A stretch of DNA of 64,000 nt, taken from the NCBI GenBank assembly GCA_020002185.1, contig CM034538.1, forward strand, positions 67,616,211-67,680,210, in the 5' to 3' direction. The position numbers were made by a program, and so were the translations under genes. The notes beneath the pieces were generated by a model. It was given only the letters and a program-made list of their open reading frames with translations, was not told the DNA's origin and ran no database searches. Of this stretch, positions 15,893-63,122 are shown in pieces. The first letter of the stretch is position 1, and the number at the start of each line of letters is the position of its first letter. Origin of the DNA: Paraescarpia echinospica. Lineage: Eukaryota; Annelida; Polychaeta; Sabellida; Siboglinidae.

Positions 15893-16069
15893 TAGCACGT
15901 TACTTGCCAGTCAATTAAATGATGTAAATAATACAGCACGTTACTTGCCAGTCAATGATATGATGTAAATAATATAGCACGTTACTTGCCAGTCAATGAT
16001 ATGATGTAAATAATACAGCACGTTACTTGCCAGTCAATGATATGATGTAAATAATACAGCACGTTACTT

Positions 16070-17572: not shown

Positions 17573-17690
17573 GTTACTTGCCAGTCAATGATATGATGTA
17601 AATAATACAGCACGTTACTTGCCAGTCAATGATATGATGTAAATAATACAGCACGTTATTTGCCAGTCAATGATATGATGTAAATAACGT

Positions 17691-37086: not shown

Positions 37087-37141
37087 TAATAACATGCTGT
37101 ATCCTAAAGAAGACAAAGAAAACAGGATTCTTCTGTATGCG
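37087..37141 (+). CDS. POLR2I: POLR2I (RPB9) exon 2
   Basis: A 55-bp exon between TATTTCCAG and GCG/GTAAGT. The first base completes the Cys codon begun in exon 1, then follows NNMLYPKEDKENRILLYA, essentially identical to the animal RPB9 sequence in the first zinc ribbon. The second Cys pair of that ribbon (C-R-N-C in most animals) and the whole second zinc ribbon must be encoded downstream. No such exon is present up to 64000. Intron 2 therefore exceeds 26.8 kb and contains the LINE/satellite complex. The exon ends in phase 0. Confidence 0.97.
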
Positions 37142-38917: not shown

Positions 38918-39278
38918 ATGGATAATGACAAACTTCTCTGTGACCTTTCCAAGATCCCATAGTCAGTTATCGAAATGTTTGATGACATCGAGGATGCATG
39001 GTCCACCTGGCAGTCCTTGTTTCTCAAAACAATTGACTCCCATGCTCCCATCAGAAAATTCCGAGCAAAATCCAAGCAATGCTTTTGGTACTCTGAGGAC
39101 ATCGAACATCTTAAAACCATCAGAGACGAGTACCACACTCAGGCTATAGACTCTCAAGATCCTCATGCCTGGGATATTATGAGAGTAATATAAGAAACTC
39201 AGGAATCATATTACTAACTTGTGTCATGAGGCCAAGAAGAATTACATCCAGAATAAGATACCAACCTCTAGTGGTAAC
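38918..39278 (+). mobile_element. LINE, upstream half: endonuclease-RT linker region
   Basis: The frame reads MDNDKLLCDLSKIP, then FDDIEDAWSTWQSLFLKTID, SHAPIRKFRAKSKQCFWYSE and DIEHLKTIRDEYHTQA. After a frameshift at a TAA near 39191 it continues RNHITNLCHEAKKNYIQNKI to PTSSGNSKD. This order is the normal segment between endonuclease and reverse transcriptase in Jockey/CR1-group elements (D-A-W, HAPI-x-K, W, EAKK-x-Y-x-x-KI, G-x-x-K-x-x-W). It leads directly into the 96-bp array, and the element resumes at 61507. Stops show it is inactive. The endonuclease itself is missing on the left. Confidence 0.85.
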
Positions 39279-41879
39279 TCCAAGGACATATGGGGGTGTA
39301 CTTAGGAACCTACTCCCACAGAAACCTCACAGTGACAACAGTGGGCTCGAGATAGGGGACCATATGGTGACCATAGCTAAGGACATGTGGGATGTACCTA
39401 AGAACCTACTCCCACAGAAACCTCGCAGTGACACCAGTGGGCTCGAGATAGGTGACCGTATGGTGACCATAGCTAAGGACATGTGGGAAGTACCTAAGAA
39501 CCTACTCCCACAGAAACCTCTCAGTGACATCAGTGGGCTCGAGATAGGTGACCGTATGGTGACCATAGCTAAGGACATGTGGGATGTACCTAAGAACCTA
39601 CTCCTACAGAAACCTCACAGTGACACCAGTGGGCTCGAGATAGGTGACCGTATGGTGACCATAGCTAAGGACATGTGGGATGTACCTACGAACCTACTCC
39701 CACAGAAACCTCTCAGTGACATTAGTGGGCTCGAGATAGGTGACCGTATGGTGACCATAGTTAAGGACATGTGGGGTGTACTTAAGAACCTACTCCCACA
39801 GAAACCTCGCAGTGACACCAGTGGGCTCGAGATACGTGACCATATGGTGACCATAGCTAAGGACATGTGGGATGTACCTAAGAACCTACTCCCACAGAAA
39901 CCTCGCAGTGACATCAGTGGGCTCGAGATAGGTGACCGTATGGTGACCATAGCTAAGGACATGTGGGATGTACCTAAGAACCTACTCCCACAGAAACCTC
40001 GCAGTGACACCAGTGGGCTCGAGATAGGGGACCATATGGTGACCATAGCTAAGGACATGTGGGATGTACCTAAGAACCTACTCCCACAGAAACCTCGCAG
40101 TGACACCAGTGGGCTCGACATAGGTGACCGTATGGTGACCATAGCTAAGGACATGTGGGATGTACTTAAGAACCTACTCCCACAGAAACCTCACAGTGAC
40201 AACAGTGGGCTCGAGATAGGGGACCATATGGTGACCATAGCTAAGGACATGTGGGATGTACCTAAGAACCTACTCCCACAGAAACCTCGCAGTGACACCA
40301 GTGGGCTCGAGATAGGGGACCATATGGTGACCATAGCTAAGGACATTTGGGATGTACTTAAGAACCTACTCCCACAGAAACCTCACAGTGACAACAGTGG
40401 GCTCGAGATAGGGGACCATATGGTGACCATAGCTAAGGACATGTGGGATGTACCTAAGAACCTACTCCCACAGAAACCTCGCAGTGACACCAGTGGGCTC
40501 GAGATAGGTGACCGTATGGTGACCATAGCTAAGGACATATGGGGTGTACTTAAGAACCTACTCCCACAGAAACCTCGCAGTGACACCAGTGGGCTCGAGA
40601 TAGGTGACCGTATCGTGACCATAGCTAAGGACATGTGGGATGTACTTAAGAACCTACTCCCACAGAAACCTCTCAGTGACACTAGTGGGCTCGAGATAGG
40701 TGACCGTAGGGTGACCATAGCTAAGGACATGTGGGATGTACTTAAGAACCTACTCCCACAGAAACCTCTCAGTGACACCAGTGGGCTTGAGATAGGTGAC
40801 CGTATGGTGACCATAGCTAAGGACACGTGGGATGTACTTAAGAACCTACTCCCATAGAAACCTCTCAGTGACATCAGTGGGCTCGAGATAGGGGACCGTA
40901 TGGTGACCATAGCTAAGGACATGTGGGGTGTACTTAGGAACCTACTCCCACAGAAACCTCGCAGTGACACCAGTGGGCTCGAGATAGGGGACCATATGGT
41001 GACCATAGCTAAGGACATGTGGGATGTACCTAAGAACCTACTCCCACAGAAACCTCGCAGTGACACCAGTGGGCTCGAGATAGGGGACCATATGGTGACC
41101 ATAGCTAAGGACATGTGGGATGTACCTAAGAACCTACTCCCACAGAAACCTCGCAGTGACACCAGTGGGCTCGAGATAGGTGACCGTATGGTGACCATAG
41201 CTAAGGACATGTGGGATGTACTTAAGAACCTACTCCCACAGAAACCTCGCAGTGACATCAGTGGGCTCGAGATAGGTGACCGTATGGTGACCATAGCTAA
41301 GGACATGTGGGATGTACTTAAGAACCTACTCCCACAGAAACCTCGCAGTGACATCAGTGGGCTCGAGATAGGTGACCGTATGGTGACCATAGCTAAGGAC
41401 ATGTGGGATGTACCTAGGAACACTACTCCCACAGAAACCTCGGTGACATCAGTGGGCTCGAGATAGGTGACCGTATGGTGACCATAGCTAAGGACATGTG
41501 GGATGTACCTTAAGAACCTACTCCCACAGAAACCTCGCAGTGACACCAGTGGGCTCGAGATAGGGGACCATATGGTGACCATAGCTAAGGACATGTGGGA
41601 TGTACCTAAGAACCTACTCCCACAGAAACCTCGCAGTGACACCAGTGGGCTCGAGATAGGTGACCGTATGGTGACCATAGCTAAGGACATGTGGGGTGTA
41701 CTTAAGAACCTACTCCCACAGAAACCTCGCAGTGACACCAGTGGGCTCGAGATAGGGGACCATATGGTGACCATAGCTAAGGACATGTGGGATGTACTTA
41801 AGAACCTACTCCCACAGAAGCCTCACAGTGACACCAGTGGGCTCGAGATAGGGGACCATATGGTGACCATAACTAAGGA

Positions 41880-43200
41880 CAGAGCTGTAACAAGTACATT
41901 TATTTTGTACTTGAGTAAAAGTACAAGTAACTTTGGAAAAAGTTACTCAAGTAAAAGTAAAAGTACTTTTTGAAAAATGTACTTGAAGTACAAGTAAAAA
42001 GTAAACAAATGTACTTGAAGTAAATGCAAAAGTACTTTTCTAAAAAACTGTTGACATGGTCACCCACTGCAAACAAACAAGTAAATTCAGTAGTGTGCAA
42101 AACAAACACTTTATTGAACAGGACAGGATCCTCAGCAGGATACAGTGACAGGCTGGCTCCTCAAACAAACTATACATACTATACAAGACAGTGACAAAAG
42201 AAATAAAATAATGGTAATACCCTATTCAGTAGTGTGTACAGTGAACACTAAATATTGTCAACGACCAGGCCTGAGGGTCAATATGTGAGACAAAATATTG
42301 AAAACATGAACCAAGAATACATATAAACAACATTTATAGGCCCTAACAATACTTATTTTATTATTAAGATAAATCTGAGTAACCATTAGCAGTTTAAATT
42401 GTCACAGCTAAGGGAATGTTTTGGGGCGATAATGTGTGAATTTCGACATGCGTTTATCACTAATGCAATTCGGGACGTTATTCAGGTCACTAATAGCTCA
42501 AACCTAAATCTAAGAACATATCTTGTTCATATTAAATGCACTTGCACCTTTTGTACAAATAACGACGTGTTATGGTGTAATATATTTGCACAGCAAAATT
42601 GAGGCAAGAATACCTTTTACCTGCGTAAGTCTAACACTAATAATTTACCGACCACGTGTGTAAGGAAGGTTCGAAGGTGATCAACAGATCTGGCATATCG
42701 GCGCACACAACAGACAGATCAACTTAACAGTAGCCCCGTGAACTGACTTAATCTCAAACATACTGGATAAGTATGGCAATGGATGCTGCAAATGATCGTT
42801 TTCAGCTGATCCTTCCATAATAAATCTTTGAACGCGAATGACATCATATAATCTTGGCAATATTCACGCCACCTGGTGATCATGCCTGGTAATGGCAATG
42901 ATAGGCCAATCAGAAAAGACTACCAGTTGTTGCTCCGGCTGATATCTATTTATAGATATATGCTGGGGAAAACCAGTTCCGGGCTTCAGGCATTATCGTT
43001 CGTTACTAATATTTTTGGAGCTCCAACTTTTTAACTTTAAATTATGGATACTTCGTTACATTTATGAAAAGTACACACATTTGTACTTCGTTACAAGTAA
43101 AAGTACTCCTAAAAAAATGTACTTCGTTACTCACGAAAAGTAAACTTTTCTACTCAAGTACAGTAACGAAGTACTTGTACTTCGTTACGTCCCAGCTCTG
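41880..43200. mobile_element. hAT-type non-autonomous element, copy 1 (1321 bp)
   Basis: Termini CAGAGCTG and CAGCTCTG. The flanks ACTAAGGA and GCTAAGGA form an 8-bp target duplication with one mismatch. The satellite unit elsewhere reads GCTAAGGA. Both ends are packed with GTACTT/AAGTAC motifs. No transposase is encoded: internal frames are under 100 codons and featureless. An 8-bp duplication and CAGAG-type ends are hAT hallmarks (family knowledge). Confidence 0.88.
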
Positions 43201-43592
43201 GCTAAGGACATGTGGGATGTACCTAAGAACCTACTCCCACAGAAACCTCTCAGTGACACCAGTGGGCTCGAGATAGGGGACCATATGGTGACCATAGCTA
43301 AGGACATGTGGGATGTACCTAAGAACCTACTCCCACAGAAACCTCGCAGTGACACCAGTGGGCTCGAGATAGGTGACCGTATGGTGACCATAGCTAAGGA
43401 CATGTGGGGTGTACTTAAGAACCTACTCCCACAGAAACCTCGCAGTGACACCAGTGGGCTCGAGATAGGGGACCATATGGTGACCATAGCTAAGGACATG
43501 TGGGATGTACTTAAGAACCTACTCCCACAGAAGCCTCACAGTGACACCAGTGGGCTCGAGATAGGGGACCATATGGTGACCATAACTAAGGA

Positions 43593-44913
43593 CAGAGCTG
43601 TAACAAGTACATTTATTTTGTACTTGAGTAAAAGTACAAGTAACTTTGGAAAAAGTTACTCAAGTAAAAGTAAAAGTACTTTTTGAAAAATGTACTTGAA
43701 GTACAAGTAAAAAGTAAACAAATGTACTTGAAGTAAATGCAAAAGTACTTTTCTAAAAAACTGTTGACATGGTCACCCACTGCAAACAAACAAGTAAATT
43801 CAGTAGTGTGCAAAACAAACACTTTATTGAACAGGACAGGATCCTCAGCAGGATACAGTGACAGGCTGGCTCCTCAAACAAACTATACATACTATACAAG
43901 ACAGTGACAAAAGAAATAAAATAATGGTAATACCCTATTCAGTAGTGTGTACAGTGAACACTAAATATTGTCAACGACCAGGCCTGAGGGTCAATATGTG
44001 AGACAAAATATTGAAAACATGAACCAAGAATACATATAAACAACATTTATAGGCCCTAACAATACTTATTTTATTATTAAGATAAATCTGAGTAACCATT
44101 AGCAGTTTAAATTGTCACAGCTAAGGGAATGTTTTGGGGCGATAATGTGTGAATTTCGACATGCGTTTATCACTAATGCAATTCGGGACGTTATTCAGGT
44201 CACTAATAGCTCAAACCTAAATCTAAGAACATATCTTGTTCATATTAAATGCACTTGCACCTTTTGTACAAATAACGACGTGTTATGGTGTAATATATTT
44301 GCACAGCAAAATTGAGGCAAGAATACCTTTTACCTGCGTAAGTCTAACACTAATAATTTACCGACCACGTGTGTAAGGAAGGTTCGAAGGTGATCAACAG
44401 ATCTGGCATATCGGCGCACACAACAGACAGATCAACTTAACAGTAGCCCCGTGAACTGACTTAATCTCAAACATACTGGATAAGTATGGCAATGGATGCT
44501 GCAAATGATCATTTTCAGCTGATCCTTCCATAATAAATCTTTGAACGCGAATGACATCATATAATCTTGGCAATATTCACGCCACTTGGTGATCATGCCT
44601 GGTAATGGCAATGATAGGCCAATCAGAAAAGACTACCAGTTGTTGCTCCGGCTGATATCTATTTATAGATATATGCTGGGGAAAACCAGTTCCGGGCTTC
44701 AGGCATTATCGTTCGTTACTAATATTTTTGGAGCTCCAACTTTTTAACTTTAAATTATGGATACTTCGTTACATTTATGAAAAGTACACACATTTGTACT
44801 TCGTTACAAGTAAAAGTACTCCTAAAAAAATGTACTTCGTTACTCACGAAAAGTAAACTTTTCTACTCAAGTACAGTAACGAAGTACTTGTACTTCGTTA
44901 CGTCCCAGCTCTG
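43593..44913. mobile_element. hAT-type element, copy 2
   Basis: 1321 bp, exactly 1713 bp after copy 1, with the same ends and the same flanking octamers. It carries the variants GATCATTTTC and CACTTGG, shared with copies 4 and 8. Confidence 0.88.
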
Positions 44914-45305
44914 GCTAAGGACATGTGGGATGTACCTAAGAACCTACTCCCACAGAAACCTCTCAGTGACACCAGTGGGCTCGAGATAGGGGACCATATG
45001 GTGACCATAGCTAAGGACATGTGGGATGTACCTAAGAACCTACTCCCACAGAAACCTCGCAGTGACACCAGTGGGCTCGAGATAGGTGACCGTATGGTGA
45101 CCATAGCTAAGGACATGTGGGGTGTACTTAAGAACCTACTCCCACAGAAACCTCGCAGTGACACCAGTGGGCTCGAGATAGGGGACCATATGGTGACCAT
45201 AGCTAAGGACATGTGGGATGTACTTAAGAACCTACTCCCACAGAAGCCTCACAGTGACACCAGTGGGCTCGAGATAGGGGACCATATGGTGACCATAACT
45301 AAGGA

Positions 45306-46626
45306 CAGAGCTGTAACAAGTACATTTATTTTGTACTTGAGTAAAAGTACAAGTAACTTTGGAAAAAGTTACTCAAGTAAAAGTAAAAGTACTTTTTGAA
45401 AAATGTACTTGAAGTACAAGTAAAAAGTAAACAAATGTACTTGAAGTAAATGCAAAAGTACTTTTCTAAAAAACTGTTGACATGGTCACCCACTGCAAAC
45501 AAACAAGTAAATTCAGTAGTGTGCAAAACAAACACTTTATTGAACAGGACAGGATCCTCAGCAGGATACAGTGACAGGCTGGCTCCTCAAACAAACTATA
45601 CATACTATACAAGACAGTGACAAAAGAAATAAAATAATGGTAATACCCTATTCAGTAGTGTGTACAGTGAACACTAAATATTGTCAACGACCAGGCCTGA
45701 GGGTCAATATGTGAGACAAAATATTGAAAACATGAACCAAGAATACATATAAACAACATTTATAGGCCCTAACAATACTTATTTTATTATTAAGATAAAT
45801 CTGAGTAACCATTAGCAGTTTAAATTGTCACAGCTAAGGGAATGTTTTGGGGCGATAATGTGTGAATTTCGACATGCGTTTATCACTAATGCAATTCGGG
45901 ACGTTATTCAGGTCACTAATAGCTCAAACCTAAATCTAAGAACATATCTTGTTCATATTAAATGCACTTGCACCTTTTGTACAAATAACGACGTGTTATG
46001 GTGTAATATATTTGCACAGCAAAATTGAGGCAAGAATACCTTTTACCTGCGTAAGTCTAACACTAATAATTTACCGACCACGTGTGTAAGGAAGGTTCGA
46101 AGGTGATCAACAGATCTGGCATATCGGCTCACACAACAGACAGATCAACTTAACAGTAGCCCCGTGAACTGACTTAATCTCAAACATACTGGATAAGTAT
46201 GGCAATGGATGCTGCAAATGATCGTTTTCAGCTGATCCTTCCATAATAAATCTTTGAACGCGAATGACATCATATAATCTTGGCAATATTCACGCCACCT
46301 GGTGATCATGCCTGGTAATGGCAATGATAGGCCAATCAGAAAAGACTACCAGTTGTTGCTCCGGCTGATATCTATTTATAGATATATGCTGGGGAAAACC
46401 AGTTCCGGGCTTCAGGCATTATCGTTCGTTACTAATATTTTTTGAGCTCCAACTTTTTAACTTTAAATTATGGATACTTCGTTACATTTATGAAAAGTAC
46501 ACACATTTGTACTTCGTTACAAGTAAAAGTACTCCTAAAAAAATGTACTTCGTTACTCACGAAAAGTAAACTTTTCTACTCAAGTACAGTAACGAAGTAC
46601 TTGTACTTCGTTACGTCCCAGCTCTG
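45306..46626. mobile_element. hAT-type element, copy 3
   Basis: 1321 bp, again 1713 bp on. It has GATCGTTTTC and CACCTGG like copy 1, and CGGCTCAC, which is shared only with copy 6. Confidence 0.88.
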
Positions 46627-47018
46627 GCTAAGGACATGTGGGATGTACCTAAGAACCTACTCCCACAGAAACCTCTCAGTGACACCAGTGGGCTCGAGAT
46701 AGGGGACCATATGGTGACCATAGCTAAGGACATGTGGGATGTACCTAAGAACCTACTCCCACAGAAACCTCGCAGTGACACCAGTGGGCTCGAGATAGGT
46801 GACCGTATGGTGACCATAGCTAAGGACATGTGGGGTGTACTTAAGAACCTACTCCCACAGAAACCTCGCAGTGACACCAGTGGGCTCGAGATAGGGGACC
46901 ATATGGTGACCATAGCTAAGGACATGTGGGATGTACTTAAGAACCTACTCCCACAGAAGCCTCACAGTGACACCAGTGGGCTCGAGATAGGGGACCATAT
47001 GGTGACCATAACTAAGGA

Positions 47019-48339
47019 CAGAGCTGTAACAAGTACATTTATTTTGTACTTGAGTAAAAGTACAAGTAACTTTGGAAAAAGTTACTCAAGTAAAAGTAAA
47101 AGTACTTTTTGAAAAATGTACTTGAAGTACAAGTAAAAAGTAAACAAATGTACTTGAAGTAAATGCAAAAGTACTTTTCTAAAAAACTGTTGACATGGTC
47201 ACCCACTGCAAACAAACAAGTAAATTCAGTAGTGTGCAAAACAAACACTTTATTGAACAGGACAGGATCCTCAGCAGGATACAGTGACAGGCTGGCTCCT
47301 CAAACAAACTATACATACTATACAAGACAGTGACAAAAGAAATAAAATAATGGTAATACCCTATTCAGTAGTGTGTACAGTGAACACTAAATATTGTCAA
47401 CGACCAGGCCTGAGGGTCAATATGTGAGACAAAATATTGAAAACATGAACCAAGAATACATATAAACAACATTTATAGGCCCTAACAATACTTATTTTAT
47501 TATTAAGATAAATCTGAGTAACCATTAGCAGTTTAAATTGTCACAGCTAAGGGAATGTTTTGGGGCGATAATGTGTGAATTTCGACATGCGTTTATCACT
47601 AATGCAATTCGGGACGTTATTCAGGTCACTAATAGCTCAAACCTAAATCTAAGAACATATCTTGTTCATATTAAATGCACTTGCACCTTTTGTACAAATA
47701 ACGACGTGTTATGGTGTAATACATTTGCACAGCAAAATTGAGGCAAGAATACCTTTTACCTGCGTAAGTCTAACACTAATAATTTACCGACCACGTGTGT
47801 AAGGAAGGTTCGAAGGTGATCAACAGATCTGGCATATCGGCGCACACAACAGACAGATCAACTTAACAGTAGCCCCGTGAACTGACTTAATCTCAAACAT
47901 ACTGGATAAGTATGGCAATGGATGCTGCAAATGATCATTTTCAGCTGATCCTTCCATAATAAATCTTTGAACGCGAATGACATCATATAATCTTGGCAAT
48001 ATTCACGCCACTTGGTGATCATGCCTGGTAATGGCAATGATAGGCCAATCAGAAAAGACTACCAGTTGTTGCTCCGGCTGATATCTATTTATAGATATAT
48101 GCTGGGGAAAACCAGTTCCGGGCTTCAGGCATTATCGTTCGTTACTAATATTTTTGGAGCTCCAACTTTTTAACTTTAAATTATGGATACTTCGTTACAT
48201 TTATGAAAAGTACACACATTTGTACTTCGTTACAAGTAAAAGTACTCCTAAAAAAATGTACTTCGTTACTCACGAAAAGTAAACTTTTCTACTCAAGTAC
48301 AGTAACGAAGTACTTGTACTTCGTTACGTCCCAGCTCTG
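47019..48339. mobile_element. hAT-type element, copy 4
   Basis: 1321 bp, 1713 bp after copy 3. Variants GATCATTTTC and CACTTGG as in copies 2 and 8, and TAATACATTT, shared only with copy 6. Confidence 0.88.
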
Positions 48340-50209
48340 GCTAAGGACATGTGGGATGTACCTAAGAACCTACTCCCACAGAAACCTCGCAGTGACACCA
48401 GTGGGCTCGAGATAGGGGACCATATGGTGTCCATAGCTAAGGACATGTGGGATGTACCTAAGAACCTACTCCCACAGAAACCTCGCAGTGACACCAGTGG
48501 GCTCGAGATAGGGGACCATATGGTGTCCATAGCTAAGGACATGTGGGATGTACCTAAGAACCTACTCCCACAGAAACCTCACATTAACACCAGTGGGCTC
48601 GAGATAGGTGACCGTATGGTGACCATAGCTAAGGACATGTGGGATGTACCTAAGAACCTACTCCCACAGAAACCTCACAGTGACACCAGTGGGTTCGAGA
48701 TAGGTGACCATATGGTGACCGTAGCTAAGGACATGTGGGGTGTACTTAAGAACCTACTCCCACAGAAACCTCGCAGTGACACCAGTGGGCTCGAGATAGG
48801 GGACCATATGGTGACCGTAGCTAAGGACATGTGGGATGTACCTAAGAACCTACTCCCACAGAAACCTCGCAGTGACACCAGTGGGCTCGAGATAGGTGAC
48901 CATATGGTGACCGTAGCTAAGGACATGTGGGGTGTACTTAAGAACCTACTCCCACAGAAACCTCGCAGTGACACCAGTGGGCTCGAGATAGGGGACCATA
49001 TGGTGACCATAGCTAAGGACATGTGGGATGTACCTAAGAACCTACTCCCACAGAAACCTCGCAGTGACACCAGTGGGCTCGAGATAGGGGACCATATGGT
49101 GACCATAGCTAAGGACATGTGGGATGTACCTAAGAACCTACTCCCACAGAAACCTCGCAGTGACACCAGTGGGCTCGAGATAGGTGACCGTATCGTGACC
49201 ATAGCTAAGGACATGTGGGATGTACTTAAGAACCTACTCCCACAGAAACCTCTCAGTGACACCAGTGGGCTTGAGATAGGTGACCATAGCTAAGGACACA
49301 TGGGATGTACTTAAGAACCTACTCCCATAGAAACCTCTCAGTGACATCAGTGGGCTCGAGATAGGGGACCGTACGGTGACCATAGCTAAGGACATGTGGG
49401 GTGTACTTAGGAACATACTCCCACAACAACCTCGCGGTGACACCAGTGGGCTCGAGATAGGGGACCATATGGTGACCATAGCTAAGGACATGTGGGATGT
49501 ACCTAAGAACCTACTCCCACAGAAACCTCGCAGTGACACCAGTGGGCTCGAGATAGGGGACCATATGGTGACCATAGCTAAGGACATGTGGGATGTACCT
49601 AAGAACCTACTCCCACAGAAACCTCGCAGTGACACCAGTGGGCTCGAAATAGGTGACCGTATGGTGACCATAGCTAAGGACATGTGGGATGTACTTAAGA
49701 ACCTACTCCCACAGAAACCTCGCAGTGACATCAGTGGGCTCGAGATAGGTGACCGTATGGTGACCATAGCTAAGGACATGTGGGATGTACCTAAGAACCT
49801 ACTCCCACAGAAACCTCGCAGTGACACCAGTGGGCTCGAGATAGGTGACCGTATGGTGACCATAGCTAAGGACGTGGGATGTACCTAAGAACCTACTCCC
49901 ACAGAAACCTCACGGTGACACCAGTGGGCTCGAGATAGGGGACCATATGGTGACCATAGCTAAGGACATGTGGGATGTACCTAAGAACCTACTCCCACAG
50001 AAACCTCACAGTGACACCAGTGGGCTCGAGATAGGTGACCGTATGGTGACCATAGCTAAGGACATGTGGGATGTACCTACGAACCTACTCCCACAGAAAC
50101 CTCTCAGTGACATTAGTGGGCTCGAGATAGGTGACCGTATGGTGACCATAGTTAAGGACATGTGGGGTGTACTTAAGAACCTACTCCCACAGAAACCTCG
50201 CAGTGACAC

Positions 50210-50363
50210 CAGTGGGCTCTCTAGATAGGACTATGGTGACCATATAGTCATGACATGTGGGATGTAATTTAAGAACTCCATCTCCCACAGAAGCCTCACA
50301 GTGACACCAGTGGGCTCAGGATAGGGACCAGTATGGTCTTACCCCAAATTGATGTCCTGCATG
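50210..50363. other. Irregular, indel-rich satellite patch 1
   Basis: Units lose phase through many single-base gains and losses (for example GGGCTCTCTAGATAGGACTA), unlike the clean neighbouring units. Similar patches occur at 53445-53645, 56855-57195 and 58190-58345. The pattern resembles uncorrected long-read consensus. Confidence 0.6.
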
Positions 50364-51690: not shown

Positions 51691-52082
51691 CCTAAGGACA
51701 TGTGGGATGTACCTAAGAACCTACTCCCACAGAAACCTCGCAGTGACACCAGTGGGCTCGAGATAGGGGACCATATGGTGACCATAGCTAAGGACATGTG
51801 GGATGTACCTAAGAACCTACTCCCACAGAAACCTCGCAGTGACACCAGTGGGCTCGACATAGGTGACCGTATGGTGACCATAGCTAAGGACATGTGGGAT
51901 GTACTTAAGAACCTACTCCCACAGAAACCTCACAGTGACAACAGTGGGCTCGAGATAGGGGACCATATGGTGACCATAGCTAAGGACATGTGGGATGTAC
52001 CTAAGAACCTACTCCCACAGAAGCCTCACAGTGACACCAGTGGGCTCGAGATAGGGGACCATATGGTGACCATAACTAAGGA

Positions 52083-53402
52083 CAGAGCTGTAACAAGTAC
52101 ATTTATTTTGTACTTGAGTAAAAGTACAAGTAACTTTGGAAAAAGTTACTCAAGTAAAAGTAAAAGTACTTTTTGAAAAATGTACTTGAAGTACAAGTAA
52201 AAAGTAAACAAATGTACTTGAAGTAAATGCAAAAGTACTTTTCTAAAAAAACTGTTGACATGGTCACCCACTGCAAACAAACAAGTAAATTCAGTAGTGT
52301 GCAAAACAAACACTTTATTGAACAGGACAGGATCCTCAGCAGGATACAGTGACAGGCTGGCTCCTCAAACAAACTATACATACTATACAAGACAGTGACA
52401 AAAGAAATAAAATAATGGTAATACCCTATTCAGTAGTGTGTACAGTGAACACTAAATATTGTCAACGACCAGGCCTGAGGGTCAATATGTGAGACAAAAT
52501 ATTGAAAACATGAACCAAGAATACATATAAACAACATTTATAGGCCCTAACAATACTTATTTTATTATTAAGATAAATCTGAGTAACCATTAGCAGTTTA
52601 AATTGTCACAGCTAAGGGAATGTTTTGGGGCGATAATGTGTGAATTTCGACATGCGTTTATCACTAATGCAATTCGGGACGTTATTCAGGTCACTAATAG
52701 CTCAAACCTAAATCTAAGAACATATCTTGTTCATATTAAATGCACTTGCACCTTTTGTACAAATAACGACGTGTTATGGTGTAATACATTTGCACAGCAA
52801 AATTGAGGCAAGAATACCTTTTACCTGCGTAAGTCTAACACTAATAATTTACCGACCACGTGTGTAAGGAAGGTTCGAAGGTGATCACAGATCTGGCATA
52901 TCGGCTCACACAACAGACAGATCAACTTAACAGTAGCCCCGTGAACTGACTTAATCTCAAACATACTGGATAAGTATGGCAATGGATGCTGCAAATGATC
53001 GTTTTCAGCTGATCCTTCCATAATAAATCTTTGAACGTGAATGACATCATATAATCTTGGCAATATTCACGCCACCTGGTGATCATGCCTGGTAATGGCA
53101 ATGATAGGCCAATCAGAAAAGACTACCAGTTGTTGCTCCGGCTGATATCTATTTATAGATATATGCTGTGGAAAACCAGTTCCGGGCTTCAGGCATTATC
53201 GTTCGTTACTAATATTTTTGGAGCTCCAACTTTTCAACTTTAAATTATGGATACTTCGTTACATTTATGAAAAGTACACACATTTGTACTTCGTTACAAG
53301 TAAAAGTACTTCTAAAAAATATACTTCGTTACTCACGAAAAGTAAACTTTTCTACTCAAGTACAGTAACGAAGTACTTGTACTTCGTTACGTCCCAGCTC
53401 TG
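52083..53402. mobile_element. hAT-type element, copy 6
   Basis: About 1320 bp. It combines CGGCTCAC (otherwise only copy 3) with TAATACATTT (otherwise only copy 4). The left 392-bp spacer (51691-52082) is regular, but the right spacer is scrambled. Confidence 0.87.
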
Positions 53403-53444
53403 GCTAAGGACATGTGGGATGTACCTAAGAACCTACTCCCACAG

Positions 53445-53645
53445 AAACCTCAGTGACACCAGTGGCTCGATAGGGACCATATATGACCATAGCCGGCGAC
53501 ATGTGGGATGTAACGGCGAACCTACTTCCCGAAACCCCATACACCAGTGGGCTCCTCGAGATAGGTGACCGATGGTGACCATAGCTAAGCGACATGTGGG
53601 GTGTGTACTAAAACCCACCCCACGAAACCCGCGACACCAGTGGGC
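53445..53645. other. Irregular, indel-rich satellite patch 2
   Basis: Scrambled units with dropped bases (for example CCCCACGAAACCC) between hAT copies 6 and 7. This makes the spacer 376 bp instead of 392 bp. Confidence 0.6.
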
Positions 53646-53778
53646 TCGAGATAGGGGACCATATGGTGACCATAGCTAAGGACATGTGGGATGTACTTAA
53701 GAACCTACTCCCACAGAAGCCTCACAGTGACACCAGTGGGCTCGAGATAGGGGACCATATGGTGACCATAACTAAGGA

Positions 53779-55099
53779 CAGAGCTGTAACAAGTACATTT
53801 ATTTTGTACTTGAGTAAAAGTACAAGTAACTTTGGAAAAAGCTACTCAAGTAAAAGTAAAAGTACTTTTTGAAAAATGTACTTGAAGTACAAGTAAAAAG
53901 TAAACAAATGTACTTGAAGTAAATGCAAAAGTACTTTTCTAAAAAACTGTTGACATGGTCACCCACTGCAAACAAACAAGTAAATTCAGTAGTGTGCAAA
54001 ACAAACACTTTATTGAACAGGACAGGATCCTCAGCAGGATACAGTGACAGGCTGGCTCCTCAAACAAACTATACATACTATACAAGACAGTGACAAAAGA
54101 AATAAAATAATGGTAATACCCTATTCAGTAGTGTGTACAGTGAACACTAAATATTGTCTACGGCCAGGCCTGAGGGTCAATATGTGACACAAAATATTGA
54201 AAACATGAACCAAGAATACATATTAACAACATTTATAGGCCCTAACAATACTTATTTTATTATTAAGATAAATCTGAGTAACCATTAGCAGTTTAAATTG
54301 TCACAGCTAAGGGAATGTTTTGGGGCGATAATGTGTGAATTTCGACATGCGTTTATCGCTAATGCAATTCGGGACGTTATTCAGGTCACTAATAGCTCAA
54401 ACCTAAATCTAAGAACATATCTTGTTCATATTAAATGCACTTGCACCTTTTGTACAAATAACGACGTGTTATGGTGTAATATATTTGCACAGCAAAATTG
54501 AGGCAAGAATACCTTTTACCTGCGTAAGTCTAACACTAATAATTTACCGACTACGTGTGTAAGGAAGGTTCGAAGGTGATCAACAGATCTGGCATATCGG
54601 CGCACACAACAGACAGATCAACTTAACAGTAGCCCCGTGAACTGACTTAATCTCAAACATACTGGATAAGTATGGCAATGGATGCTGCAAATGATCGTTT
54701 TCAGCTGATCCTTCCATAATAAATCTTTGAACACGAATGACATCATATAATCTTGGCAATGTTCACGCCACCTGGTGATCATGCCTGGTAATGGCAATGA
54801 TAGGCCAATCAGAAAAGACTACCAGTTGTTGCTCCGGCTGATATCTATTTATAGATATATGCTGGGGAAAACCAGTTCCGGGCTTCAGGCATTATCGTTC
54901 GTTACTAATATTTTTGGAGCTCCAACTTTTTAACTTAAAATTATAGATACTTCGTTACATTTATGAAAAGTACACACATTTGTACTTCGTTACAAGTAAA
55001 AGTACTCCTAAAAAAATGTACTTCGTTACTCACGAAAAGTAAACTTTTCTACTCAAGTACAGTAACGAAGTACTTGTACTTCGTTACGTCCCAGCTCTG
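53779..55099. mobile_element. hAT-type element, copy 7
   Basis: 1321 bp, with the copy-5 variant set (AAAGCTACTC, GTGACACAAA, TTATCGCTAA). Its left 376-bp spacer is irregular. It is 1713 bp before copy 8. Confidence 0.88.
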
Positions 55100-55491
55100 G
55101 CTAAGGACATGTGGGATGTACCTAAGAACCTACTCCCACAGAAACCTCTCAGTGACACCAGTGGGCTCGAGATAGGGGACCATATGGTGACCATAGCTAA
55201 GGACATGTGGGATGTACCTAAGAACCTACTCCCACAGAAACCTCGCAGTGACACCAGTGGGCTCGAGATAGGTGACCGTATGGTGACCATAGCTAAGGAC
55301 ATGTGGGGTGTACTTAAGAACCTACTCCCACAGAAACCTCGCAGTGACACCAGTGGGCTCGAGATAGGGGACCATATGGTGACCATAGCTAAGGACATGT
55401 GGGATGTACTTAAGAACCTACTCCCACAGAAGCCTCACAGTGACACCAGTGGGCTCGAGATAGGGGACCATATGGTGACCATAACTAAGGA

Positions 55492-56812
55492 CAGAGCTGT
55501 AACAAGTACATTTATTTTGTACTTGAGTAAAAGTACAAGTAACTTTGGAAAAAGTTACTCAAGTAAAAGTAAAAGTACTTTTTGAAAAATGTACTTGAAG
55601 TACAAGTAAAAAGTAAACAAATGTACTTGAAGTAAATGCAAAAGTACTTTTCTAAAAAACTGTTGACATGGTCACCCACTGCAAACAAACAAGTAAATTC
55701 AGTAGTGTGCAAAACAAACACTTTATTGAACAGGACAGGATCCTCAGCAGGATACAGTGACAGGCTGGCTCCTCAAACAAACTATACATACTATACAAGA
55801 CAGTGACAAAAGAAATAAAATAATGGTAATACCCTATTCAGTAGTGTGTACAGTGAACACTAAATATTGTCAACGACCAGGCCTGAGGGTCAATATGTGA
55901 GACAAAATATTGAAAACATGAACCAAGAATACATATAAACAACATTTATAGGCCCTAACAATACTTATTTTATTATTAAGATAAATCTGAGTAACCATTA
56001 GCAGTTTAAATTGTCACAGCTAAGGGAATGTTTTGGGGCGATAATGTGTGAATTTCAACATGCGTTTATCACTAATGCAATTCGGGACGTTATTCAGGTC
56101 ACTAATAGCTCGAACCTAAATCTAAGAACATATCTTGTTCATATTAAATGCACTTGCACCTTTTGTACAAATAACGACGTGTTATGGTGTAATATATTTG
56201 CACAGCAAAATTGAGGCAAGAATACCTTTTACCTGCGTAAGTCTAACACTAATAATTTACCGACCACGTGTGTAAGGAAGGTTCGAAGGTGATCAACAGA
56301 TCTGGCATATCGGCGCACACAACAGACAGATCAACTTAACAGTAGCCCCGTGAACTGACTTAATCTCAAACATACTGGATAAGTATGGCAATGGATGCTG
56401 CAAATGATCATTTTCAGCTGATCCTTCCATAATAAATCTTTGAACGCGAATGACATCATATAATCTTGGCAATATTCACGCCACTTGGTGATCATGCCTG
56501 GTAATGGCAATGATAGGCCAATCAGAAAAGACTACCAGTTGTTGCTCCGGCTGATATCTATTTATAGATATATGCTGGGGAAAACCAGTTCCGGGCTTCA
56601 GGCATTATCGTTCGTTACTAATATTTTTGGAGCTCCAACTTTTTAACTTTAAATTATGGATACTTCGTTACATTTATGAAAAGTACACACATTTGTACTT
56701 CGTTACAAGTAAAAGTACTCCTAAAAAAATGTACTTCGTTACTCACGAAAAGTAAACTTTTCTACTCAAGTACAGTAACGAAGTACTTGTACTTCGTTAC
56801 GTCCCAGCTCTG
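55492..56812. mobile_element. hAT-type element, copy 8
   Basis: 1321 bp, 1713 bp after copy 7, with the variants GATCATTTTC and CACTTGG of copies 2 and 4. It is the last copy. A long hAT-free satellite block follows. Confidence 0.88.
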
Positions 56813-56854
56813 GCTAAGGACATGTGGGATGTACCTAAGAACCTACTCCCACAG

Positions 56855-57195
56855 AAACCCTCAAGAAAGTGACACCCAGTGGGCCTCGAGATAGGACCAT
56901 ATGGTGTCCATAGCTATGACATGTGGGATGCACCTAAGAACCTACTCCCACAGAAAACCCCCGCAAGAGTGACACCAGTGGCCTGTGATGAGGACCATAT
57001 GGTGTCCATAGCCATGACATGGATGCACCTAAACTACTCCCCACAGAAACCCCACACATTAACACCACAGTGGCCTTAGATAGGTGACCGTGATGGTGAC
57101 ACTTACAGCTAAGGACATGTGGGATGTACCTGCAAGAACCTGCTACTCCCACAGAAACCCTGTTTGCATTTCTCACCCAGTGGGTCTTTCGAAGA
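56855..57195. other. Irregular, indel-rich satellite patch 3
   Basis: About 3.5 units with homopolymer-type gains such as CAGAAAACCCCCGC and lost segments, located just right of hAT copy 8. Clean units resume near 57196. Confidence 0.6.
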
Positions 57196-58189
57196 TAGGT
57201 GACCGTATGGTGACCATAGCTAAGGACATGTGGGATGTACCTAAGAACCTACTCCTACAGAAACCTCACAGTGACACCAGTGGGCTCGAGATAGGTGACC
57301 GTATGGTGACCATAGCTAAGGACATGTGGGATGTACCTACGAACCTACTCCCACAGAAACCTCTCAGTGACATTAGTGGGCTCGAGATAGGTGACCGTAT
57401 GGTGACCATAGTTAAGGACATGTGGGGTGTACTTAAGAACCTACTCCCACAGAAACCTCGCAGTGACACCAGTGGGCTCGAGATACGTGACCATATGGTG
57501 ACCATAGCTAAGGACATGTGGGATGTACCTAAGAACCTACTCCCACAGAAACCTCGCAGTGACACCAGTGGGCTCGAGATAGGGGACCATATGGTGACCA
57601 TAGCTAAGGACATGTGGGATGTACCTAAGAACCTACTTCCACAGAAACCTCGCAGTGACACCAGTGGGCTCGAGATAGGTGACCGTATGGTGACCATAGC
57701 TAAGGATATGTGGGATGTACTTAAGAACCTACTCCCACAGAAACCTCTCAGTGACACCAGTGGGCTTGAGATAGGTGACCATATGGTGACCATAGCTAAG
57801 GACACGTGGGATGTACTTAAGAACCTACTCCCATAGAAACCTCTCAGTGACATCAGTGGGCTCGAGATAGGGGACCGTATGGTGACCATAGCTAAGGACA
57901 TGTGGGGTGTACTTAGGAACCTACTCCCACAGAAACCTCGCAGTGACACCAGTGGGCTCGAGATAGGGGACCATATGGTGACCATAGCTAAGGACATGTG
58001 GGATGTACCTAAGAACCTACTCCCACAGAAACCTCGCAGTGACACCAGTGGGCTCGAGATAGGGGACCATATGGTGTCCATAGCTAAGGACATGTGGGAT
58101 GTACCTAAGAACCTACTCCCACAGAAACCTCGCAGTAACTCCAGTGGGCTCGAGATAGGTGACCATATGGTGACCGTAGCTAAGGACAT

Positions 58190-58345
58190 GTGGGGGCACT
58201 AGGAACATCAACAACCCTCAAGGTGACACCCAGTGGGCCTTAGATAGGACCATATGGTGACCATAGCCATGACATGTGGGATGTACCGCAACCTACTCCC
58301 ACAGAAACCCTCAAGAGTGACAATCTTGAAAATGGATAGGACCAT
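58190..58345. other. Irregular, indel-rich satellite patch 4
   Basis: Disordered units (GGGGGCACTAGGAACATC and following) between clean blocks. They occupy the place where the first 1329-bp repeat would otherwise continue leftwards. Confidence 0.6.
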
Positions 58346-61170
58346 ATGGTGACCATAGCTAAGGACATGTGGGATGTACCTAAGAACCTACTCCCACAGA
58401 AACCTCGCAATGACACCAGTGGGCTCGAGATGGGTGACCGTATGGTGACCATAGCTAAGGACATGTGGGGTGTACTTAAGAACCTACTCCCACAGAAACC
58501 TCGCAGTGATATCAGTGGGCTCGAGATAGGTGACCGTATGGTGACTATAGCTAAGGACATGTGGGATGTACCTTAGAACCTACTCCCACAGAAACCTCGC
58601 AGTGACACCAGTGGGCTCGAGATAGGGGACCATATGGTGACCATAGCTAAGGACATGTGGGATGTACCTAAGAACCTACTCCCACAGAAACCTCGCAGTG
58701 ACACTAGTGGGCTCGAGATAGGGGACCATATGGTGACCATAGCTAAGGACATGTGGGATGTACCTAAGAACCTACTCCCACAGAAACCTCGCAGTGACAC
58801 CAGTGGGCTCGAGATAGGGGACCATATGGTGACCATAGCTAAGGACATGTGGGATGTACTTAAGAACCTACTCCCACAGAAACCTCGCAGTGACATCAGT
58901 GGGCTCGAGATAGGTGACCGTATGGTGACCATAGCTAAGGACATGTGGGATGTACTTAAGAACCTACTCCCACAGAAACCTCGCAGTGACATCAGTGGGC
59001 TCGAGGACCATATGGTGACCATAGCTAAGGACATGTGGGATGTACCTAAGAACCTACTACTACAGAAACCTCGTAGTGACATCAGTGGGCTCGAGATAGG
59101 TGACCGTATGGTGACCATAGCTAAGGACATGTGGGATGTACTTAAGAACCTACTCCCACAGAAACCTCGCAGTGACAACAGTGGGCTCGAGATAGGTGAC
59201 CGTATGGTGACCATAGCTAAGGACATGTGGGGTGTACTTAGGAACATCAACAACCTCGCGGTGACACCAGTGGGCTCGAGATAGGTGACCGTATGGTGAC
59301 CATAGCTAAGGACATATGGGATGTACGTAAGAACCTACTCCCACAGAAACCTCGCGGTGACATCAGTGGGCTCGAGATAGGTGACCGTATGGTGACCATA
59401 GCTAAGGACATGTGGGATGTACCTAAGAACCTACTCCCACAGAAACCTCGCAGTGACACCAGTGGGCTCGAGATAGGTGACCGTATGGTGACCATAGCTA
59501 AGGACGTGGGATGTACCTAAGAACCTACTCCCACAGAAACCTCACGGTGACACCAGTGGGCTCGAGATAGGGGACCATATGGTGACCATAGCTAAGGACA
59601 TGTGGGATGTACCTAAGAACCTACTCCCACAGAAACCTCGCAGTGACACCAGTGGGCTCGAGATAGGGGACCATATGGTGACCATAGCTAAGGACATGTG
59701 GGATGTACCTAAGAACCTACTCCCACAGAAACCTCGCAATGACACCAGTGGGCTCGAGATGGGTGACCGTATGGTGACCATAGCTAAGGACATGTGGGGT
59801 GTACTTAAGAACCTACTCCCACAGAAACCTCGCAGTGATATCAGTGGGCTCGAGATAGGTGACCGTATGGTGACTATAGCTAAGGACATGTGGGATGTAC
59901 CTTAGAACCTACTCCCACAGAAACCTCGCAGTGACACCAGTGGGCTCGAGATAGGGGACCATATGGTGACCATAGCTAAGGACATGTGGGATGTACCTAA
60001 GAACCTACTCCCACAGAAACCTCGCAGTGACACTAGTGGGCTCGAGATAGGGGACCATATGGTGACCATAGCTAAGGACATGTGGGATGTACCTAAGAAC
60101 CTACTCCCACAGAAACCTCGCAGTGACACCAGTGGGCTCGAGATAGGGGACCATATGGTGACCATAGCTAAGGACATGTGGGATGTACTTAAGAACCTAC
60201 TCCCACAGAAACCTCGCAGTGACATCAGTGGGCTCGAGATAGGTGACCGTATGGTGACCATAGCTAAGGACATGTGGGATGTACTTAAGAACCTACTCCC
60301 ACAGAAACCTCGCAGTGACATCAGTGGGCTCGAGGACCATATGGTGACCATAGCTAAGGACATGTGGGATGTACCTAAGAACCTACTACTACAGAAACCT
60401 CGTAGTGACATCAGTGGGCTCGAGATAGGTGACCGTATGGTGACCATAGCTAAGGACATGTGGGATGTACTTAAGAACCTACTCCCACAGAAACCTCGCA
60501 GTGACAACAGTGGGCTCGAGATAGGTGACCGTATGGTGACCATAGCTAAGGACATGTGGGGTGTACTTAGGAACATCAACAACCTCGCGGTGACACCAGT
60601 GGGCTCGAGATAGGTGACCGTATGGTGACCATAGCTAAGGACATATGGGATGTACTTAAGAACCTACTCCCACAGAAACCTCGCGGTGACATCAGTGGGC
60701 TCGAGATAGGTGACCGTATGGTGACCATAGCTAAGGACATGTGGGATGTACCTAAGAACCTACTCCCACAGAAACCTCGCAGTGACACCAGTGGGCTCGA
60801 GATAGGTGACCGTATGGTGACCATAGCTAAGGACGTGGGATGTACCTAAGAACCTACTCCCACAGAAACCTCACGGTGACACCAGTGGGCTCGAGATAGG
60901 GGACCATATGGTGACCATAGCTAAGGACATGTGGGATGTACCTAAGAACCTACTCCCACAGAAACCTCGCAGTGAAACCAGTGGGCTAGAGATAGGGGAC
61001 CATATGGTGACCATAGCTAAGGACATGTGGGATGTACCTAAGAACCTACTCCCACAGAAACCTCGCAATGACACCAGTGGGCTCGAGATGGGTGACCGTA
61101 TGGTGACCATAGCTAAGGACATGTGGGGTGTACTTAAGAACCTACTCCCACAGAAACCTCGCAGTGATAC
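58250..61170. repeat. 1329-bp higher-order repeat inside the 96-bp satellite
   Basis: Blocks recur at an exact offset of 1329 bp, for example 58573-59253 with 59902-60582 and 59579 onward with 60908 onward. The length equals 14 units minus 15 bp. Three diagnostic deletions account for this: 6 bp at CTCGAGGACC, 7 bp at GGAACATCAACAACC and 2 bp at GGACGTGGGA. A little over two copies are present. Confidence 0.85.
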
Positions 61171-61506
61171 CAGTGGGCTCGAGATAGGGGACCATATGGT
61201 GACCATAGCTAAGGACATGTGGGATGTACTTAAGAACCTACTCCCACAGAAACCTCGCAGTGACATCAGTGGGCTCGAGATAGGTGACCGTATGGCGACT
61301 ATAGCTAAGGACATGTGGGATGTACTTAAGAACCTACTCCCACAGAAACCTCGCAGTGACATCAGTGGGCTCGAGATAGGTGACCGTATGGTGACCATAG
61401 CTAAGGACATGTGGGATGTACCTAAGAACCTACTCCTACAGAAACCTCGTAGTGACATCAGTGGACTAGAGATAGGTGACCGTATGGTGACCATAGCTAA
61501 GGACAT

Positions 61507-63122
61507 GGCCAATGAATTCAACTCATTCTTTGTGAACATTAGTAAGAAACTGGCGAATAAGATTCGTTCAACATTAAGTTACAAAACATACCTCATCAAG
61601 GCCAGGACAACATCAAACAAATTCCACTTTAACAACATTTCGCCAGAAGACGTCGGAAAACTTCTCAGGGGCCTCAAGACCAACAAGGCGACTGGTCTAG
61701 ATAACATCCCAGCTAGGATACTGAAGATAGCTGCACCAGCCATAAGTGACCGTATAGCGTATCGGTTCAATCCATCCCTCACATCTGGAAGGGTACCATC
61801 TGACTGGAAACGTGCTAAGGTGTCAGCTATATTCAAACAAGGGTCTAAGCTGGACTTTGGTAACTATAGGCCTATTTCTGTGCTCCTATTATCAGTAAAC
61901 TGTTAGAGAAACTTGTTCATCAACAGCTGTATACATTTCTTGCCGATAATAACATTCTCTGTTCCGACCAATCCGGATTCCGACAACGTCACTCGACTCA
62001 AACCAGGCTTCACAACATCATGGAGGATATTTATCAATCAACAAACTGTAGTGGTCTAGTTGGACTGATTGCTTTAGACCTAAGGAAGGCATTTCACTGT
62101 GAATCACAATATACTCATGGACAAATTATCATACTATGGAATTAATTCTGATTGGTTTAAATCATATCTTACAAACAGAACTCAAAGTGCCACCATAAAT
62201 GGACAGTCTTCAGAATAGCTGTATGTTGAAACAGGTGTACCTCAGGGCTCTATCCTTGGACCCTTGTTATTTCTTGTATATCTAAATGACCTGCCAGTAT
62301 CTCTAGATCACTGTAGAGTAAACGTGTATGCTGACGATACTGCATTCTATACTCCAGATAATCTTGCTAACAACATTCATGATATCACCCACATTCTTCA
62401 AACTGATCTATTCAATGTTAGTAACTGGTTAGATGCCAACAAACTCACTCTTCACATTAGTAAAACCTCATGTATGCTACTGTGTTCAAGACAAAAACGT
62501 AAATATGTAAATGCTTCAACTCTATCTCTACAAGGTCAAAAAATTGAACAGGCTGAATCCTATAAATATCTTGGTGTCACTATTGATCAGGATCTCACAT
62601 TTAAAACACATGTAGAAAATGTTATACATAAAATCAACAGGTCACTCGGTGTATTGAAACGTAGTAGTCCATTTATTCCTCTCTCGAGTTGGGTTACATT
62701 ATGTAACACTATGTTATTACCTCATTTGGATTATTATTGTACTCTATGGGATGTTTGCTCAGATTGTAACATAAGTAGACTTCTGAAATTACAGAATCGA
62801 GGAATGCGTATTATCCTGGGGTGCCATCACAGGACCCACGTCTCTGATATGTTAACATCTCTAAAATGGTTAAATGTTCGTCAAAGATTTATTCTTCTGA
62901 AATGTACTATTGTGTAAAACATTGTAAATGGTAAAACTCCAAATTATCTTAATAAGGTAACTCCTGGGATATCTCACAGTTATAGTACAAGATCTAAATC
63001 ATCCAATAATATCTTCCAAACCCATAGTCACCAAAAGTCTCTAAAATACACTGGCACATCATTGTGGAACAATCTACCATCTAAACTAAAAAATCAAAAA
63101 ACTTGCCAGTTTCAAAAATTAA
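61507..63122 (+). mobile_element. LINE, downstream half: reverse transcriptase and C-terminus, decayed
   Basis: Continues from the satellite frame as ANEFNSFFVNISKKLANKIR, then KTNKATGLDNIPARILK, DWKRAKVSAIFKQG and NYRPISVL. A frameshift lies near 61890, then SDQSGFRQRHSTQTRLHN and LIALDLRKAF. The next catalytic region is disturbed near 62095. A TAG lies near 62217, then TGVPQGSILGPLLFLVYLND and the catalytic YADDTAFY box near 62330. The C-terminal region YLGVTIDQDLTFKTHV, LPHLDYYCTLWD and LWNNLPSKLKN follows. The order matches CR1/Jockey-group reverse transcriptase. The element stops near 63122, where a GTACT-rich sequence begins. It is not functional. Confidence 0.9.

What the first reader, a model, noticed from the sequence alone, without database searches (positions are those of the whole stretch)
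38918..63122. A LINE split by a 22-kb satellite made from its own coding sequence
The LINE reads through its endonuclease-RT linker to SGNSKD, then about 121 copies of a 96-bp segment follow, then the same element resumes with MVTIAKDMANEFNSFFVNIS and the reverse transcriptase. The unit translates in the LINE frame to a normal-looking linker piece (KDMW...NLLPQKP...GLEIGDHMVTIAKD), and its length is exactly 32 codons. The simplest reading is that a single linker segment was duplicated and then expanded by unequal exchange, creating a satellite inside a retrotransposon. Retroelement-derived satellites are known in general. Expansion of a 32-codon linker that leaves the two halves of the element on either side is unusual. 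Whether the expansion preceded or followed loss of LINE function cannot be told here.
Basis: partly seen in the sequence, partly recalled or inferred. Interest (0 to 1): 0.82.

Follow-up and report, generated by a model that had tools for sequence, protein, structure and literature searches.

The report
Satellite grown inside a dead LINE
A 96-base piece of a dead jumping gene's own protein code has been copied head to tail about 120 times, with both halves of the jumping gene still on either side, a clear snapshot of how a satellite can be born from a transposon, a process already known in outline.

Summary
A LINE fragment (38909-39281) is interrupted by a 96-bp array (39282-61507) and resumes at 61508. 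The closest relative found, P0001 (74% identity over 300 residues), carries the 32-residue segment once, collinear with both halves. Of 120 relatives, 91 span the segment; none has a second copy. So the unit is the LINE's own linker, not an older satellite. KDM at both ends of the segment matches a 9-bp direct repeat 96 bp apart, the probable seed of the first duplication (inferred).

Corrections: the 22.2 kb holds eight copies of a 1.32-kb hAT-like element (10.6 kb) and 11.7 kb of unit DNA (121.5 unit-equivalents). The hAT probably inserted once, with an 8-bp target duplication, and was co-amplified, mostly with a 1,713-bp period. Four stretches look like uncorrected long-read sequence, so length and order are uncertain. 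Units vary without visible coding constraint. The locus follows RPB9 exon 2 in sense, probably in a siboglinid tubeworm.

LINE-ORF satellites are known. The own genome did not complete, so genome-wide tests were not run.

The parts
38909..39281 (+). Left half of the LINE: end of the endonuclease domain and start of the linker, with in-frame stops and one frameshift; 5'-truncated against an inverted LINE
   Evidence: tblastn P0001 205-296 and 295-325 map here, 67% and 77% identity; translation
39282..61507 (+). Array of the 96-bp (32-codon) LINE-linker unit, mosaic with eight hAT-like copies; its last 9 bp (61499-61507) are the partial copy AAGGACATG
   Evidence: TRF, unit scan, partition into 11,661 bp unit DNA + 10,565 bp hAT
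39282..39290 (+). Left copy of the 9-bp direct repeat that bounds the unit (here AAGGACATA; array consensus AAGGACATG)
   Evidence: read directly; KDM in relatives
61499..61507 (+). Right copy of the 9-bp direct repeat, AAGGACATG, followed by LINE sequence GCCAAT
   Evidence: read directly; KDMANEF in P0001 and P0121
61508..63122 (+). Right half of the LINE: rest of the linker and reverse transcriptase, with frameshifts and stops; 3' end followed by another repeat
   Evidence: tblastn P0010 34-159, 160-212 and 231-571, 62-71% identity; PF00078 in 62219-62917, E 4.7e-15
41880..43200 (.). hAT-like element, copy 1 (ends CAGAGCTG...CAGCTCTG; 8-bp target duplication [A/G]CTAAGGA). Other copies start at 43593, 45306, 47019, 50364, 52083, 53779, 55492
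41491..48339 (+). Four successive [4 units + hAT] blocks, period 1,713 bp
   Evidence: unit start spacing; hAT copies 2-4 are 99.77-99.85% identical to copy 1; haplotype string
58344..61001 (+). Two head-to-tail copies of a 1,329-bp block of units (offset identity 0.998 over 58361-59830; start taken from a 96-bp window table)
56813..57222 (.). One of four indel-rich stretches (also about 50215-50365, 53403-53600, 58160-58365) that look like uncorrected long-read consensus
   Evidence: 82-87% identity with 9-29 gap openings; 8 of 98 control windows have four or more gap openings and all overlap these stretches
30054..30121 (+). Host gene RPB9 (POLR2I) exon 1, MDIDIEQNEGEPSFIGIKFCQE(C), followed by GTAAGT
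   Evidence: tblastn with Ridgeia RPB9; sequence
37087..37141 (+). RPB9 exon 2, (C)NNMLYPKEDKENRILLYA, between AG and GTAAGT; the array lies downstream, in the intron that follows
   Evidence: PF02150 on the joined exons E 2.5e-10
37916..38908 (-). A different, 5'-truncated LINE in opposite orientation that abuts the left LINE half
   Evidence: translation; tblastn of P0001 and P0004 RT, best E 2.9e-15

Best explanation
A 5'-truncated, inactive CR1/L2-like LINE copy in an intron of RPB9 suffered a tandem duplication of exactly one 96-bp linker segment. The segment begins with, and is followed by, the same 9 bases (AAGGACATG, encoding KDM), so misaligned replication or unequal exchange at this short direct repeat would copy precisely one 96-bp unit (inferred). 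Once two units existed, unequal exchange and block duplication raised the number to over a hundred (block duplications are shown; the exchange mechanism is inferred). A hAT-like element then inserted, most simply once, into a unit, making an 8-bp target duplication (shared flanks shown, single insertion inferred), and blocks of about 4 units + hAT were amplified, mostly with a 1,713-bp period (shown). The array now varies without visible regard to the reading frame (shown), so it behaves as non-coding satellite DNA.
For: P0001 has one copy, collinear with both halves, no indel in the segment. Of 120 relatives, 91 have an alignment that spans the segment with flanks; net length differences run from -8 to +6 residues, none near +32. 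KDM...KDM in P0001, KDM...KDI in P0008...KDM in P0121. The array ends with a 9-bp partial copy before single-copy LINE sequence. hAT: seven of eight copies have identical 30-bp flanks on both sides, and copies 2-8 are 98.7-99.8% identical to copy 1. Block duplications: recurring haplotype runs and the 1,329-bp offset. No visible coding constraint: 51 distinct changes split 14 synonymous / 35 non-synonymous / 2 stop (27/69/4%), against 23/74/3% expected with transitions weighted double; counting every occurrence gives 79/226/5 (no significance test was run).
Against: The left copy of the 9-bp repeat now reads AAGGACATA (8 of 9). No relative's DNA was available, so the 9-bp identity in the ancestor is inferred from KDM, and synonymous differences are possible. 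By my own rough estimate a few chance 9-bp direct repeats are expected in a LINE, so the repeat fits the boundaries but does not prove the mechanism. 29 of 120 relatives have no alignment spanning the segment and say nothing; P0121 and P0010 begin inside the segment and cannot show an upstream copy. The own genome could not be searched, so the array may also exist elsewhere. Against a single 4-unit hAT block: copy 5 (50365) has a different left flank, beside a noisy stretch, and one changed base on the right; the start-to-start spacing of copies is 1713, 1713, 1713, 3345, 1719, 1696, 1713 (from the coordinates); and three of the four units before copy 6 (haplotypes 7, 8, 9, 35) belong to types found elsewhere in the array and none is among those before copies 1-4.
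Confidence: 0.88

Rival explanations
1. A LINE inserted into a pre-existing, unrelated 96-bp satellite.
For: Only the arrangement LINE-satellite-LINE as such.
Against: The unit is homologous to the linker of relatives and fills exactly the missing residues. An insertion would not split the LINE at its own matching segment.
Confidence: 0.01
2. The duplication arose earlier, in another copy of the LINE, and a LINE already carrying two or a few units retrotransposed here; the large expansion followed locally, or array DNA was copied in from another array.
For: Not excluded: the own genome could not be searched. Short internal arrays in mobile elements acting as seeds are reported for plants (PMC7004042, abstract) and for Tetris (PMC4079207, passages).
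Against: None of the 91 spanning relatives has a second unit. A search with ten units found one protein with one visible unit, but scored only the 7,996 candidates sharing most words. These proteins come from other, mostly unnamed sources.
Confidence: 0.1
3. Array size and internal order are partly an assembly product: collapsed, chained or unpolished repeats.
For: Four indel-rich stretches at 82-87% identity beside near-perfect units; hAT copies 2-4 of the 1,713-bp blocks are almost identical to copy 1.
Against: hAT copies differ by substitutions, and two (50365 and 53780) share several; both array edges join LINE sequence cleanly. Not exclusive with the best explanation.
Confidence: 0.35
4. 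The repeats are a functional, in-frame 32-residue protein repeat of an active element.
For: 96 = 32 codons, and the consensus unit is open.
Against: No excess of synonymous change, unit spacings of 85-95 bp occur, hAT insertions, stops and frameshifts in both LINE halves.
Confidence: 0.01

Closest known systems
LINE-ORF-derived satellites: HinfI/SCR1 of chicken (CR1 partial ORF2 + 3'UTR), PROsat of Phodopus (L1 ORF2), Pvc20 of seal (L1 ORF2), as listed in review PMC9659126 (passages seen)
   Same: Satellite unit derived from LINE coding sequence, the CR1 case being the nearest element type
   Different: Here the single-copy source element still flanks the array on both sides and the unit is bounded by an identifiable short direct repeat; abundance elsewhere is unknown. 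Whether this also holds for any of those satellites was not checked
CR1-renegade of the trematode Himasthla elongata (PMC8392823, passages seen)
   Same: A CR1-like spacer/linker fragment with a career of its own, apart from the RT
   Different: Reported as not tandemly organised; here the linker piece is in tandem and in place
Satellites grown from tandem repeats inside LTR-retrotransposons of Lathyrus sativus (PMC7004042, abstract and section list seen)
   Same: Expansion of an array inside a retroelement
   Different: Those grow from short arrays that the elements already carry; here relatives carry one unit, in coding sequence
Tetris foldback transposon and TIR-220 satellite of Drosophila virilis (PMC4079207, abstract and passages seen)
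   Same: Transposon-internal repeat acting as seed for kb-size arrays
   Different: DNA transposon terminal repeats; amplification linked to beta-heterochromatin
Higher-order repeats with an embedded mobile element (recalled, from no call)
   Same: A transposon is co-amplified with satellite units
   Different: Host satellite is itself transposon-derived

Membership tests
LINE-ORF-derived satellite DNA | Unit homologous to single-copy LINE coding sequence | tested here: met
   91 of 120 relatives span the segment with one copy, P0001 and P0008 among the closest
LINE-ORF-derived satellite DNA | Long head-to-tail array of similar units | tested here: met
   112 scanned units, one strand; mean pairwise identity 95.2% among the 99 clean ones, 13 dropped from that figure
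LINE-ORF-derived satellite DNA | Abundant, at many loci or heterochromatic | not testable with these tools
CR1/L2-like LINE | Reverse transcriptase domain | tested here: met
   PF00078 in 62219-62917, E 4.7e-15
CR1/L2-like LINE | Apurinic-type endonuclease domain in the same ORF | tested here: inconclusive
   Truncated away here; in relative P0001 PF14529 E 6.8e-07 above cut-off, PF03372 E 0.00052 below cut-off
CR1/L2-like LINE | Clade placement by phylogeny | not tested
   The clade name is recalled; no tree was built
hAT transposon (non-autonomous) | 8-bp target-site duplication | tested here: met
   ACTAAGGA left, GCTAAGGA right (7 of 8 bases identical; unit consensus GCTAAGGA) in 7 of 8 copies
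hAT transposon (non-autonomous) | Short terminal inverted repeats starting CAGNG | tested here: met
   CAGAGCTG / CAGCTCTG in 8 of 8 copies; the CAGNG rule is recalled
hAT transposon (non-autonomous) | hAT transposase, or a transposase-bearing relative | not tested
   No library was searched with this element
RPB9 (POLR2I) gene | Conserved N-terminal Zn ribbon with matching splice sites | tested here: met
   PF02150 E 2.5e-10 on the joined exons; GTAAGT / AG / GTAAGT
RPB9 (POLR2I) gene | Remaining exon(s) | tested here: not met
   Ridgeia residues 41-128 give no match better than E 0.45 in the window; they would lie beyond 64000, or the gene is cut

The most novel reading that the evidence does not exclude
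A chance 9-bp direct repeat inside any sequence is enough, in this lineage, to trigger large tandem expansion. Minisatellites with ten different unit lengths lie left of this array and, with a few simple repeats, make up about 24% of that 39 kb (hand-picked TRF rows). The LINE array would be the one readable example, because its single-copy ancestor is known, of a genome-wide, microhomology-seeded expansion process that also runs inside introns of essential genes.
Probability: 0.2. Interest if true: 0.65.

Novelty: new member of a known kind. Interest (0 to 1): 0.45.

Why it matters
Many transposon-derived satellites are recognised only when source and array are apart (general knowledge). Here the array still sits between the two halves of its source element, so the ancestral single copy, the exact duplicated segment and its bounding short repeat can be read off. 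A later hAT-like insertion orders a second round of amplification after the first. It gives a concrete, testable model of the first step of satellite birth, in a gene intron.

Tried and rejected
LINE insertion into an older satellite: rejected. A functional protein repeat: rejected. Tandem units in relatives: of 121 proteins compared with a 43-residue linker query, 77 matched at E up to 10 and four had more than one piece; apart from P0002's true linker match (E 5e-15), all pieces of these four have E 1.8-9.4 and at most 54% identity over short stretches, so they are no second units. About 60 of the 91 spanning alignments were printed, all 91 were counted; P0121 was fetched later and does not span. 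Unit DNA patterns: 1 hit in viral contigs (L001) and 3 in genome contigs (L002-L004), the chance level by my own estimate; none of the four has a LINE match better than E 0.076. P0001 in viral contigs: 2 pattern hits, none confirmed. Rfam on the window at gathering threshold: 0 matches. Dating the expansion from the LINE's decay: dropped as uninformative, since an intact 96-bp seed is likely either way (own reasoning). A dimeric order of unit types: mean identity by lag is flat, 0.92-0.94 for lags 1-15. Reading the order of growth from array edges: the left edge unit has the relatives' residues at codons 5 and 7, the right edge unit has not; no conclusion. My first noise control was poor: two of its three control stretches matched themselves; it was replaced by the self-excluding test, with the same outcome. 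Paper searches. In the titles and abstract starts listed I saw no satellite still flanked by its LINE source, but the terms were narrow and the library holds open-licence papers only. One passage of the Ridgeia genome paper PMC9921365 was seen; the words satellite and tandem repeat do not occur in its main text.
Full report
WHAT IS THERE. The span 39282-61507 is a 96-bp tandem array. A consensus scan finds 112 units on the + strand. The left neighbour reads as a LINE up to ...TSSGNSKD, and the right neighbour resumes KDMANEFNSFFVNIS followed by reverse transcriptase. With the array masked, tblastn of the relative P0001 puts residues 205-325 on 38909-39281 and residues 361-596 from 61508. Only the 32-residue segment 326-357 and the KDM that follows it fall in the array.

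THE UNIT IS THE LINE'S OWN LINKER. A search with the LINE returned 125 proteins, of which 120 were listed. P0001 is 74% identical over the 300 residues compared and reads SGNSKDMWGVLKNLLPQKSHSDISGLEIGSKFVTLAKDMANEFNSFF, exactly one unit with no indel. Of the 120, 91 have an alignment that covers the segment with flanks; its length differs from one unit by -8 to +6 residues, and none has a second copy. The other 29 do not span it and say nothing. A search with ten units of the array, limited to the 7,996 candidates sharing most words, found a single protein, P0121, which begins inside the segment and shows one unit.

HOW IT PROBABLY STARTED. The segment begins with KDM and is followed by KDM in this element and in P0001; P0121 is followed by KDM; P0008 has KDM and KDI. 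At the DNA level the array consists of whole units plus a final 9 bases, AAGGACATG, before single-copy LINE sequence. This is what slippage or unequal exchange between two 9-bp direct repeats 96 bp apart leaves behind. The step is inferred: the left copy now reads AAGGACATA, and no relative's DNA was available.

HOW IT GREW. The 99 clean units are 95.2% alike on average, and 54 haplotypes occur among all 112. Runs of haplotypes recur in blocks at distant places. A 1,329-bp block from about 58344 is tandemly duplicated at 0.998 identity. Changes fall 14 synonymous, 35 non-synonymous and 2 stop among 51 distinct types, close to the 23/74/3% expected without constraint; no significance test was run. 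By codon position the minor variants are uneven (30, 187, 93), because a few common variants dominate. The array thus looks like non-coding DNA now. This says nothing firm about whether the LINE was dead before the first duplication.

A SECOND LAYER. Eight copies of a 1.32-kb element interrupt the array, 10,565 of 22,226 bp. Each ends in CAGAGCTG/CAGCTCTG. In seven of eight it is flanked by identical sequence, with ACTAAGGA on the left and GCTAAGGA on the right, an 8-bp target duplication with one change. That these are hAT hallmarks is recalled. Insertion once, followed by co-amplification with units, is the simplest account. Start-to-start distances are 1713, 1713, 1713, 3345, 1719, 1696 and 1713 bp (coordinates). 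It does not run smoothly everywhere: copy 5 has another left flank and lies beside a noisy stretch, and the four units before copy 6 are of other haplotypes than those before copies 1-4, so exchange or assembly error has shuffled the blocks.

ASSEMBLY CAUTION. Four stretches match other array DNA at 82-87% with 9-29 gap openings each. Of 98 windows of 200 bp compared with the rest of the array, self-matches excluded, 83 have no gap opening and 90 fewer than four; the 8 others all overlap these stretches. They look like uncorrected long-read sequence. Length and order should be treated as provisional; the two outer junctions and the unit are not affected.

CONTEXT. Two exons of RPB9 lie upstream on the same strand, 30054-30121 and 37087-37141, with matching splice sites. 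The rest of RPB9 was not found in the window, so the LINE and its array lie in intron 2, at least 26.8 kb long in this assembly, unless the gene is broken. The best-scoring RPB9 is that of the tubeworm Ridgeia piscesae, with 3 differences in the 41 residues read from the window, which suggests a siboglinid annelid. The query ends in recalled human residues, which favours vertebrates in its listing. Left of the array lie many other tandem repeats, about 24% of 39 kb by hand-picked TRF rows.

KNOWN OR NEW. Review PMC9659126 (passages seen) lists satellites from LINE ORF2 in chicken (CR1), Phodopus and seal. A CR1-like spacer fragment of a trematode lies apart from its RT but is reported as not tandem (PMC8392823, passages). 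Lathyrus satellites grow from arrays inside LTR elements (PMC7004042, abstract), and Tetris seeded a satellite in Drosophila virilis (PMC4079207, passages). The kind is known. What I did not see in these passages is a single-copy source still bracketing its array, so that the first step can be read, with a later transposon insertion recording a second round of amplification.

Noticed in passing
30054-30121 and 37087-37141: Exons 1 and 2 of RNA polymerase II subunit RPB9; the LINE/satellite complex sits in sense downstream, in the following intron.
   Followed up: yes
15894-16069 and 17573-17687: The same 41-bp tandem repeat (4.3 and 2.8 copies) flanks both ends of a minus-strand LINE (16158-17573), as if the LINE inserted into a minisatellite or carries it at its 3' end; a copy of that LINE's end at 28190-28713 matches at 91%.
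   Followed up: partly
1-34027: Minisatellites with ten different unit lengths (16, 24, 35, 38, 39, 40, 41, 42, 45, 57 bp) lie left of the array; whether any are related was not tested.
   Followed up: partly
37916-38908: Another 5'-truncated LINE in opposite orientation meets the left LINE half head to head.
   Followed up: partly
63123-63250: Repeats like GTACTC at the cut 3' end of the LINE, similar in flavour to the hAT-like ends, suggest another insertion there.
   Followed up: no
50365-51690 and 53780-55099: hAT copies 5 and 7 share several substitutions, so at least two lineages of the hAT-bearing block exist.
   Followed up: partly
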